Shown in pieces: positions 1-41,936 of a stretch of 64,000 nucleotides of DNA. The position numbers and the translations under genes were made by a program. This stretch comes from Quillaja saponaria (taxonomy: Eukaryota; Streptophyta; Magnoliopsida; Fabales; Quillajaceae): assembly GCA_029379385.1 (NCBI GenBank), contig CM055615.1, positions 1,054,001 through 1,118,000 of the forward strand, in the 5' to 3' direction. Each line of letters opens with the position of its first letter. The first letter of the stretch is position 1. Below the pieces are notes generated by a model, which saw only the letters and a program-made list of their open reading frames with translations, was not told the origin of the DNA and ran no database searches.

Positions 1-563
1 ATAACCAAAACCTTGGCAGCAAGAAGATTTGTGGATTTAGTAGTGAAATCGGTAGCAATATCCTGTGGTAATTCAGAGGACATTAACGGAGAATAATTGG
101 AAGCCGTTCTCAAAGCAGATGAAGTTGTGTAAAAAGCATGTGAAATGCGGAGCCTACTGGCTGTTGCGGTTATCCATTGAGGAAAAACGTCATGAATTAT
201 CCAATCTGGATCTGAGGTTTCAAGGAAGGTGGTGATAGGTTGTTGCAAACCCTCAAGGGCTTTAATAAGTAAATAATAGGCAATAGGATTGTCATGTGTG
301 ACGTCGTTTGTTGATTCCACATTTTCATGAAGATTGGGTATATGAGGCAGTGGGAATTCTATGAAATTAAGGTTGTTGGATAAATGGGATGGAATTTTAG
401 GTAGGCGTCGGATGTTTCTGGGTGTTGAGATATAGGAAATTTTGTGACCTTTTTGGGCTATCAGCTTTGCAAGCTCTAAAAATGGTATCATGTGACCAAA
501 GGCCAGCCATGGAAACAGCACTACGTGAAGCTTTTTGTAGCTGTTTATGACTCGATCCGCCAT
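1..563 (-). CDS. UGT91-type UDP-glycosyltransferase, N-terminal part (runs off the window)
   Basis: Reading leftward from the ATG at 561-563 the frame stays open for 187 codons to the window edge. The protein starts with the acceptor-binding half of a family-1 glycosyltransferase: FPWLAFGH with the catalytic His at residue 24, then STPRNIRRLPKIP, and a PDWIIHD segment carrying the His-activating Asp. The same blocks occur in the intact UGT91 at 11823-13244 (FPWLAMGH, STPRNISRLPQIP, PDWILYD), so the two are paralogues in opposite orientation. The UGT91 family usually adds a second sugar to an existing glycoside. The donor-binding PSPG half lies outside the window, so completeness cannot be judged. 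A run of 28 C lies 36 bp upstream of the start codon. Confidence 0.85.
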   Translation of the reverse strand, partial: MADRVINSYKKLHVVLFPWLAFGHMIPFLELAKLIAQKGHKISYISTPRNIRRLPKIPSHLSNNLNFIEFPLPHIPNLHENVESTNDVTHDNPIAYYLLIKALEGLQQPITTFLETSDPDWIIHDVFPQWITATASRLRISHAFYTTSSALRTASNYSPLMSSELPQDIATDFTTKSTNLLAAKVLV

Positions 564-566
564 TAC

Positions 567-880
567 CGGAATAAACTTACTGTTGCAAACTGGAGTAGCC
601 CCCCCCCCCCCCCCCCCCCCCCCCCCGCTAACAAATGTCTTATGTATTTATAGACAATGACATACGTGTTGGTAGACCTTTTAGAATTTATTTTATTTAG
701 TAATAAATTTTCTCTTAGTGTTCTATTTTTATTGTTATTATTTTGATTTAAATTTTCTCTTCTAGAAGAGATTAACTGTATTCTTGATTCTAAACTTATC
801 AGTATTAAACTTACTATTGTAAACTCTCGAACCCTGGATACTTGCAAACAAATACGTATTTATAGATAATGACATATTGC
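567..880. repeat. Imperfect duplicated UGT91 leader
   Basis: The stretch at about 571-655 (AAACTTACTGTTGCAAACT, later ATTTATAGACAATGACATA) recurs at about 805-875 (AAACTTACTATTGTAAACT, ATTTATAGATAATGACATA). The two copies are roughly 220-235 bp apart. The first copy holds the poly-C insertion and abuts the coding region. This is a diverged local duplication of the 5' leader or promoter. Confidence 0.6.
599..626. repeat. 28-base poly-C tract
   Basis: An uninterrupted run of 28 cytosines sits just upstream of the UGT91 start on the other strand. Such tracts are rare in AT-rich plant intergenic DNA and its exact length is unlikely to be reliable in any assembly. Confidence 0.9.
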
Positions 881-39437: not shown

Positions 39438-39597
39438 TTCAACATTAATTTTAGTGTTTTACATTCTGGCTTACACTTTGAAACCACACCTCGCTTCAAT
39501 GCTGCACCATACAAATTGCAAGCCCCGAACAAGCGACGCTGTTTATTTAACCTACTGATAAAAAGGTTATAAGAAATATTGCTGTGAAGTCTTCGAT
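39438..39597 (-). pseudogene. PPR gene fragment (3' end only)
   Basis: On the minus strand this encodes ISYNLFISRLNKQRRLFGAC and YGAALKRGVVSKCKP, matching the last 45 or so residues of the intact PPR protein (42523-44061: TSYNLLINKLNKQHSLFGAC, YAAALKRGVVSKCKP). Similarity stops abruptly at the CTTCGATG word, 39590-39597, which is the duplication breakpoint. It is a truncated copy, not a gene. Confidence 0.88.
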
Positions 39598-40078
39598 GAG
39601 CTACCCACACAACGGGAACGGAGGTAGTTTTCTCGATTCCATAAATACCTCGTCCAATTCAATGCTAGGTCTTTGTATCAACACCACAAGTGACCAACAC
39701 CGATTGAATGAACAGATGTCTTGTTTAAATTTAAAGAAAATTCCCATTAGCTCCGAGTAGGAAGGCCTTCTAGCTGCCATTGAAAAAGGATCTTCAGATC
39801 CAAAATGGATTTCTCCCACAAGAACGGGGAAAACCAAGAGACCAAGAACACCAGCACGCAGGAAAACAGCCCTTTTGAAAGCATACACAAGGAGCCAGCA
39901 TCCATCTAATCTTCACTTACAAACATCAAATGCCCTTATTTTGGGCAAATATATATATATATATATTTGTATATATTGAATCAAACCCGTCCAAGGCATG
40001 GAGCACATCAATATATTTTTCCTCGAGGGGTGAAGTCACTTCTCATATCTCAAGGAAACAATCCAACTTCCATCAACA
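39598..40078. other. Duplication junction and SDR copy 2 promoter
   Basis: Bases 39601-39900 hold an unassigned open stretch on the minus strand with a hydrophobic segment (AGVLGLLVFPVLVGE) that I cannot place in a family. From about 39975 the sequence matches the promoter/leader of SDR copy 1. An (AT)n run is at 39951-39965. Confidence 0.5.
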
Positions 40079-41936
40079 ATGGCAGAAACAACAGAGAGGT
40101 ACCCTCCTTCATCTTTCTCCTGCTTTTCTGTTTTCATTTTTTCAGTTTCTGTCACTTCTTTAAGCTAAGCCATGGCTACAATTACTTATTTAACCTAATT
40201 TCCAAACTTGCTCAGTTTTTTCCTTCTTCTTTTTCCCTTTTCCAAGGTATGCTGTTGTGACAGGATCTAATAAGGGAATTGGATTTGGGATATGGAAACA
40301 GTTGGCTTCTAAGGGAATTACAGTAGTGTTAAAAGCTAGAGATGAGAAGAGAGGTCTGGAAGCCGTTGAGAAATTGAAAGAAATTAGTCTGGCTGGTCAT
40401 GTGGTTTTTTGATCAACTCGATGTGTCTGATCCTGCTAGTGTTACTAACCTTGAAGATTTCATCAAAACCCAGTTTGGGAAACTAGATATTCTGGTATGG
40501 ATAAGGTCCAAGTTCCTCTTTTTATGTTTCCTGTCTAATTCTGCAACTTGCTTAACATAATAACACCAATCTCACACGTAATAGTTATTTCATACTTGAG
40601 TAAAGGAGAAAAGAGATCACAACTAATTCATTCTTATACATGGGACCTTGATAAACCACTAAAAGCACATAGTAGAACTGGGAATTGGGAATTACCTTTC
40701 CAATCTGTTAAAACACCCCAAGAAACAAAAACAACTGGGATTACGGAATTTGGTATTTCAATTTCGGGTCCTGTTTAACTGTGACAAGCATTTTCTGGCT
40801 TTGATCTTCAAATTATTGAAAGACAATTAAAGAACATCTAACATAATTGAGTTTATTGTGTCTGTTTCAAAGACTTTAGAACCTTTTTTTTTTCCCGATT
40901 GGGTAATATATTAGTTCCTCTTCTATGCAGGTAAACAATGCAGGGATAACTGGAGCAACAGTAGATGCTGATGCTTTAGCAGCTTCAGGCTTCAGTACAG
41001 GGGTATGCTTTTGCACTCATTTTCAAACTTTTGACTCCCCTGTTCATCTTATGGATGAGTTTTGTAATTTGGAACCAGTTTTCCATTTGAAGGATGTACA
41101 ATATTGCAACATTTTAGCTGTTCTAGTTGTGTAAGTCATTGTATTTTTGGTTTTTTGTTTTAATTTTGGCTCAACTTTGCAAGAATAGGAGTAAGAACCA
41201 ATAGTGAATAGATTGCCTGAAAAAGAAAACAATTGTAATAAGTCTCTTCTTGTCCATGCAGGGTGAACGTAAGCCTATTGATTTGAGTAAGTTAGTGATA
41301 CCAAATTATAAATCAGTCGAAAAAGCTTTCAACACAAACTATTACGGTGCCAAAAGAATGACAGAAGCACTTGTACCCCTTCTCCAGTTATCAGACTCAC
41401 CCAGGATTGTTAATGTCTCCTCTGATATGGGACAGTTAAAGGTAATACATCAAGATATATACTGAACTTCTATATGTTCAAATTGTGACTCATTTTCAAT
41501 CACATCAACAATTGAAGTTAGTACTATAGTTTCTCTTCTTATAATGCTGTTGTAGAATATACCAAGTGGATGGGCAAAGGAAGTGCTCACAGATGTTGAT
41601 AACCTAACAGAAGGAAAATTGGATGAAGTTTTGACCCAGTTTTTGAAAGATTTCAAAGAGGAGGGTTCATTAGAAACCAAAGGCTGGCCTAGTCTTATGT
41701 CTTCATATATAGTCTCTAAAGCTGCTTTAAATGCCTACACAAGGATTCTTGCTAAGAAGTACCCATCTTTCTGCATCAATTGTGTACACCCTGGCTATGT
41801 GAAGACAGATATAACCTATGATACTGGCCAATTAAGTGTTGATGAAGGTGCTGAAAGTCCTGTAAGATTGGCCTTGCTGCCTAATGGAGGTCCTTCTGGC
41901 GTGTTCTTCTTCAGGACAGAAGAGGCACCATTTTGA
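40079..41936 (+). CDS. Short-chain dehydrogenase/reductase, copy 2, with one-base frameshift
   Basis: The layout is the same as SDR copy 1: exons 40079-40098, 40247-40494, 40931-41002, 41262-41441 and 41556-41936. Exon 2 is one base longer than in copy 1 (248 against 247) because the T run at 40405-40410 has six T where copy 1 has five, followed at once by TGA. If that base is removed, 299 residues result with TGSNKGIG, NNAG, NVSS and the Tyr-x3-Lys of SYIVSK all intact, and PGYVKTDI preserved. Splice sites and later exons are unharmed. Either this is a very young pseudogene or the base is a sequencing insertion. The last exon has one extra Glu codon. Function would be as for copy 1. Confidence 0.88.

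What the first reader, a model, noticed from the sequence alone, without database searches (positions are those of the whole stretch)
1..41936. Candidate saponin-type glycosylation gene cluster: UGT91, UGT74, UGT91, SDR, CslG, SDR
Within 42 kb sit two UGT91 genes plus two UGT91 relics, a UGT74, two SDR114C-type reductases and a CslG. Established knowledge: in soapbark, soapwort and spinach, saponin decoration uses a CslG for C-3 glucuronidation and a UGT74 for the first C-28 sugar. An SDR of this type helps make the D-fucose unit, and UGT91 enzymes elongate the chain. Finding all four families side by side, with intact reading frames for CslG, SDR1, UGT74 and UGT91, is unlikely by chance. No oxidosqualene cyclase or P450 is in the window, so this would be the tailoring part only, or a partial cluster.
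Basis: partly seen in the sequence, partly recalled or inferred. Interest (0 to 1): 0.85.

Follow-up and report, generated by a model that had tools for sequence, protein, structure and literature searches.

The report
Soapbark QS-21 saponin sugar-gene cluster
This stretch comes from the Chilean soapbark tree and holds part of the already published gene cluster that attaches sugars to the vaccine-adjuvant saponin QS-21, next to a cellulose-synthase-like gene and two reductase genes whose part in the pathway is unproven.

Summary
The window is Quillaja saponaria. Its UGT74 (9696..8088, minus) splices to 457 residues, all identical to PDB 9PF3, which is QsFucT/UGT74BX1, the QS-21 C-28 'fucosyl' transferase. 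Published gene IDs put UGT91AR1, UGT74BX1 and UGT91AP1 side by side, with CYP716A297 and ACT2 further on; the window shows UGT91-UGT74-UGT91. By numbering, the UGT91 at 11823-13241 is probably AR1 and the edge one AP1, with the P450 left of the window (inference). On the other flank lie an intact FucSyn-type SDR, a 9.4-kb Mutator-like element, an intact CSLM-type Csl, an EF-P gene and a frameshifted second SDR. The Csl groups with two other Quillaja copies, beside legume Csl proteins. No P450, OSC or BAHD signature was found in the window. Verdict: a known cluster with two neighbours of unproven role.

The parts
1..563 (-). UGT91 #1, N-terminal 187 codons, runs off the window edge; probably UGT91AP1 (Qs0321940) by gene order
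   Evidence: reading frame; 50-62% to the 20 best of 360 fetched proteins, none of them Quillaja; ID by inference
8088..9696 (-). UGT74BX1 (QsFucT), exons 9043-9696 and 8088-8807, 457 aa
   Evidence: 457 of 457 residues identical to PDB 9PF3
11823..13241 (+). UGT91 #2, 473 aa, one exon; probably UGT91AR1 (Qs0321920, C-28 rhamnosyltransferase) by gene order and kinship
   Evidence: (PF00201); ID by inference
13383..13490 (+). UGT91 relic with a stop
16212..16289 (+). UGT91 relic, PSPG-box region
17215..19203 (+). SDR1, FucSyn/neomenthol-dehydrogenase type, exons 17215-17234, 17379-17625, 18184-18255, 18532-18711, 18826-19203, 298 aa
19469..28865 (.). Mutator-like element with inverted ends, between SDR1 and Csl
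29519..33451 (+). Csl of CSLM/CSyGT type, exons 29519-30136, 30987-31079, 31308-31430, 31524-31736, 31837-31936, 32025-32200, 32332-32679, 32981-33451, 713 aa
   Evidence: (PF03552)
40079..41936 (+). SDR2, duplicate of SDR1 with a frameshift in exon 2

Best explanation
This is one flank and the UGT core of the published QS-21/QS-7 saponin cluster of Quillaja saponaria. UGT74BX1 moves 4-keto-6-deoxyglucose from its UDP sugar to the C-28 carboxyl of the glycosylated quillaic acid; an SDR of the QsFucSyn kind reduces it in place to D-fucose; UGT91AR1 adds L-rhamnose (all published, not tested here). The other UGT91 is most likely UGT91AP1, listed for QS-7. The Csl and SDRs beside them are of the families that do C-3 glucuronidation and D-fucose formation. 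I think SDR1 and the Csl are working paralogues of the characterised enzymes and SDR2 a decaying copy (inference).
For: UGT74 identical over 457 of 457 residues to 9PF3, which PMC12728629 names QsFucT, UGT74BX1. Gene order UGT91-UGT74-UGT91 matches Qs0321920/930/940. UGT91 #2 groups with legume soyasaponin III rhamnosyltransferases. Csl groups with the other Quillaja copies and six legume Csl rows; residues of its catalytic region agree with all other rows aligned. SDR1 has an intact frame and SDR motifs. Literature: the three UGTs have the top score for co-expression, transcript level and clustering; two reviews report the clustering.
Against: Published P450 and acyltransferase are not in the window. 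No expression data were tested. No Csl or FucSyn-type SDR is in the published top 40, though the known CSLM and FucSyn genes are missing from it too, so this does not discriminate.
Confidence: 0.9

Rival explanations
1. The window's Csl and/or SDR1 are the characterised CSLM1 or CSLM2 and QsFucSyn themselves, so that C-3 glucuronidation, keto-sugar transfer, its reduction and rhamnosylation are encoded side by side.
For: Right families, intact frames, beside UGT74BX1.
Against: Among the 120 listed hits the copies of these genes are only a 650-aa Csl model and a 263-aa SDR model that lacks 35 residues holding YxxxK; no full-length copy is listed, although deposited cDNAs of known enzymes should be in the database. 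One review says the CSL genes were found by co-expression, in contrast to the clustered UGTs. Both points are indirect: the cluster members behind the listed entries could not be seen.
Confidence: 0.2
2. Only the three UGTs belong to the pathway; the Csl and SDRs are unlinked neighbours (other substrates, or hardly expressed), separated from the UGTs by a transposon and mixed with housekeeping genes such as EF-P.
For: MULE-like element and EF-P lie among them; SDR2 is broken; neither family appears in the published top 40.
Against: Csl belongs to a clade with known 3-O-glucuronosyltransferases (for the literature); SDR1 is intact and SDR1/SDR2 show dN well below dS. Closest relatives of UGT91 #2 and SDR1 share another contig, so this linkage may be old.
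Confidence: 0.35
3. The window is a paralogous region elsewhere in the genome and not the published QS-21 cluster.
For: Quillaja relatives of UGT91 #2, SDR1 and Csl exist on other contigs at 79-86%.
Against: UGT74 is identical over its whole length to the crystallised UGT74BX1, with a UGT91 on each side as in the published IDs.
Confidence: 0.03

Closest known systems
QS-21/QS-7 cluster of Quillaja saponaria (Reed et al. 2023, not held and not read; PMC10972754 Table 1, PMC12162524, PMC11439499)
   Same: Identical UGT74BX1, a UGT91 on either side
   Different: Window shows the flank away from CYP716A297 and ACT2; its Csl and SDRs are not named in the passages I saw
Saponarioside pathway of Saponaria officinalis (PMC11782082, passages)
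   Same: A CSL, a UGT74 and an SDR do the matching steps (SoCSL1, UGT74CD1, SoSDR1); SoSDR1 is 57.2% identical to QsFucSyn per the paper
   Different: Genes lie on different chromosomes; the gene list has UGT79s and no UGT91
Aescin clusters of Aesculus chinensis (PMC10576086, passages)
   Same: A CslM-type glucuronosyltransferase (AcCSL1) inside a triterpene cluster
   Different: AcCluster II has P450s with the CSL; no UGT74, UGT91 or SDR is named in the passages

Membership tests
Published QS-21 cluster of Q. saponaria | Holds UGT74BX1 | tested here: met
   457 of 457 residues identical to 9PF3
Published QS-21 cluster of Q. saponaria | UGT91 genes on both sides of UGT74BX1 (Qs0321920, Qs0321940) | tested here: met
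   UGT91 at 1-563 and 11823-13241; which is AR1 and which AP1 is inferred
Published QS-21 cluster of Q. saponaria | CYP716A297 and ACT2 nearby (Qs0322000, Qs0322030) | not testable with these tools
   Not in the window by motif; the genome could not be searched
Published QS-21 cluster of Q. saponaria | Co-expression with QsbAS1 | not tested
   Literature only: score 3.00 for the three UGTs
CSLM/CSyGT 3-O-glucuronosyltransferases | Cellulose_synt domain and conserved catalytic region | tested here: met
   PF03552, E 1.7e-125; DCD, ES and QxxKW columns invariant over 12 rows
CSLM/CSyGT 3-O-glucuronosyltransferases | Groups with known members | tested here: met
   Nine-row set with six legume rows, 100/98; SoCSL1, Aralia and Panax CSLM in the same 33-row tree, midpoint root
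CSLM/CSyGT 3-O-glucuronosyltransferases | Glucuronidates the triterpene C-3 hydroxyl | not testable with these tools
   Needs an assay
QsFucSyn-type SDR (SDR114) | SDR fold with TGxxxGIG and YxxxK, intact frame | tested here: met
   SDR1: PF00106; SDR2 is frameshifted
QsFucSyn-type SDR (SDR114) | Sequence identity to QsFucSyn | not testable with these tools

The most novel reading that the evidence does not exclude
The published cluster reaches further than its UGT, P450 and acyltransferase core: SDR1 is an uncharacterised working 4-ketoreductase and the Csl a third working CSLM of soapbark, co-regulated with UGT74BX1 and UGT91AR1, so that C-3 glucuronidation and the transfer-then-reduce fucosylation step are genetically linked.
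Probability: 0.25. Interest if true: 0.45.

Novelty: already known. Interest (0 to 1): 0.25.

Why it matters
QS-21 is a vaccine adjuvant and its C-28 sugar chain starts with the UGT74 in this window. If the neighbouring Csl and SDR1 are working, uncharacterised paralogues, they would be extra enzymes, perhaps with other substrate range, for engineered saponins, and a case of transfer-then-reduce sugar chemistry kept together in one plant cluster.

Tried and rejected
Rejected: a degenerate Csl. The ES and QxxKW variants first looked like lost catalytic residues, but all 12 aligned rows share them (two of the 12 are the window gene itself, my model and the public model P0121).

Rejected: gene IDs rising to the right. 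Only five IDs in steps of 10 fit between Qs0321940 and Qs0322000, but at least seven genes (SDR1, Csl, EF-P, SDR2, PPR, LRR kinase, Tmemb_14) lie right of UGT91 #2 without a P450 signature, so CYP716A297 should be on the left (inference; the steps of 10 are read from the IDs).

Mended while checking: I had counted the absence of a Csl from the published top 40 against the Csl being CSLM1/CSLM2; those two are themselves absent from it, so it does not discriminate.

Led nowhere: two literature searches on CslG clusters gave 0 papers; a search for the named sequences found accessions but no letters; Reed et al. 2023 is not held. The trees used chosen subsets of the listed hits: 32 of 120 plus the window Csl, 26 of 120 plus SDR1, and 29 of 120 for UGT91, the window row P0001 being one; they show neighbours, not a census. 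The UGT91 tree has no row for the left-edge gene. Structure prediction was not used. For the MULE no target-site duplication was found by eye.

Full report
What the window is. The intact UGT91 (11823-13241, 473 aa) is listed as the window's own protein on a contig of 21,697,328 bases, and the next five hits are Quillaja saponaria proteins at 65-79%. The Csl model (713 aa) matches a Quillaja protein on a contig of the same length at 100% over 91% of the query. Two Quillaja SDR entries on a contig of that length, P0250 and P0270, carry the SDR1 and SDR2 sequences in shortened form; two further ones, P0267 and P0272 at 74%, lie there too. The window is therefore soapbark.

The decisive identity. 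The minus-strand UGT74 splices (9696-9043, 8807-8088) to 457 residues, identical in all 457 to PDB 9PF3. PMC12728629 (passages seen) gives 9PF3 as QsFucT, UGT74BX1. PMC10972754 (section 9 read; other passages) lists UGT91AR1, UGT74BX1 and UGT91AP1 as Qs0321920, Qs0321930 and Qs0321940, CYP716A297 as Qs0322000 and ACT2 as Qs0322030, all with score 3.00; the score adds co-expression with QsbAS1, transcript level in primordia and presence in a predicted cluster. Two reviews report glycosylation genes near CYP716A297 (PMC12162524, passages and section 9; PMC11439499, passages). The cluster is published.

Which UGT91 is which. One UGT91 runs off the left edge (ATG at 563, minus strand), the other is at 11823-13241. 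If IDs rose to the right, CYP716A297 would have to follow with at most five IDs between, but the right side holds SDR1, Csl, EF-P, SDR2, a PPR gene, an LRR kinase and a Tmemb_14 gene and no P450 signature. So IDs should fall to the right, and UGT91 #2 should be AR1, the edge gene AP1. UGT91 #2 sits in a seven-row Quillaja clade (96/92) that joins nine legume rows, mostly named soyasaponin III rhamnosyltransferase (100/100), which fits a rhamnosyltransferase. This is inference. UGT74BX1 and UGT91 #2 are divergent, 2126 bp between their start codons.

How it works, from the literature. UGT74BX1 transfers 4-keto-6-deoxyglucose to the C-28 carboxyl and QsFucSyn reduces it in place to D-fucose (PMC12728629, passages); UGT91AR1 adds rhamnose, and CSLM1 and CSLM2 glucuronidate quillaic acid (PMC11111400, passages). 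UGT91AP1 is in a list of enzymes for QS-7 (PMC11718399, passage). None of these activities was tested here.

The Csl. Eight exons, one intron with a GC donor. It is 81% and 70% identical to two other Quillaja proteins, P0122 and P0123, on a contig of 26,458,745 bases. The three form one set (98/92), joined with six legume rows (100/98), in a tree of 33 rows rooted at the midpoint for drawing; SoCSL1, Aralia CSLM1 and Panax CSLM are in the other half. Passages of PMC11782082 and PMC10576086 describe this family as C-3 glucuronosyltransferases. It is most likely active. Whether it is CSLM1, CSLM2 or a third copy is not settled. Leaning against the first two: the only copy of it among the 120 listed hits is a 650-aa model, and a review sets the finding of CSL genes by co-expression apart from the clustered UGTs.

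The SDRs. SDR1 is intact, 298 aa, five exons; the public model P0250 lacks 35 residues that hold YxxxK. Its nearest relative is P0247, 86%, on a contig of 26,440,403 bases, which also holds P0002, the nearest relative of UGT91 #2 at 79%. SDR2 has an extra T that brings in a stop. Compared in two parts, SDR1 and SDR2 give dN 0.038, dS 0.133 and dN 0.036, dS 0.143; 670 of 711 bases agree in the later part. So both were under constraint for most of the time since duplication, and the break is recent or an assembly error.

Sequence in between. A 9.4-kb element (19469-28865) with inverted ends (83% over 360 aligned bases; 180- and 75-nt arms at 91% and 87%) carries frames with MuDR DNA-binding, SWIM and plant-mobile domains. 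The SDR2 flank matches its two flanks without the element. SDR1 and SDR2 blocks match at 82-90% DNA identity, and the 3' end of the PPR gene (42251-42681) is repeated at 39160-39598 at 88%. In the SDR2 copy these two stretches adjoin; around SDR1 the Csl and EF-P genes lie between them. A duplication with later loss, or an insertion, would explain this; the order of events is open.

Verdict. What may be unpublished is the nature of the Csl and SDR1 on this flank; since Reed et al. 2023 was not held, I do not claim that it is not in print.

Noticed in passing
window 19469-28865: Mutator-like element of 9.4 kb with inverted ends and MuDR, SWIM and plant-mobile-domain frames; the SDR2 flank is the matching site without it.
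   Followed up: partly
window 34428-39036 (+): EF-P gene (EFP_N and Elong-fact-P_C exons) between the Csl and SDR2; 'plastid-type' is my recalled label.
   Followed up: partly
window 39160-39598 and 42251-42681: 3' end of the PPR gene duplicated at 88%, bracketing SDR2; Csl and EF-P lie where the SDR2 copy has a direct join.
   Followed up: partly
window 42526-49144 (-): PPR gene (525-codon frame) and an LRR receptor kinase in pieces; outside the pathway.
   Followed up: no
window 55605-57903 (+): Tmemb_14 gene (PF03647), probably a FAX-type chloroplast fatty acid exporter (recalled label).
   Followed up: no
window 599-626: Run of 28 C on the plus strand (G on the coding strand), just upstream of the left UGT91 start codon; repeat or assembly artefact.
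   Followed up: no
window 17215-19203 and 29519-33451: Public gene models of SDR1 (P0250, 35 residues missing) and Csl (P0121, starts at an internal Met) are shorter than the frames read here.
   Followed up: yes
window 26930-28154 and 52232-53579: Repeat of about 1.3 kb, 75% identical, once inside the Mutator-like element and once near 52-53 kb; not identified.
   Followed up: no
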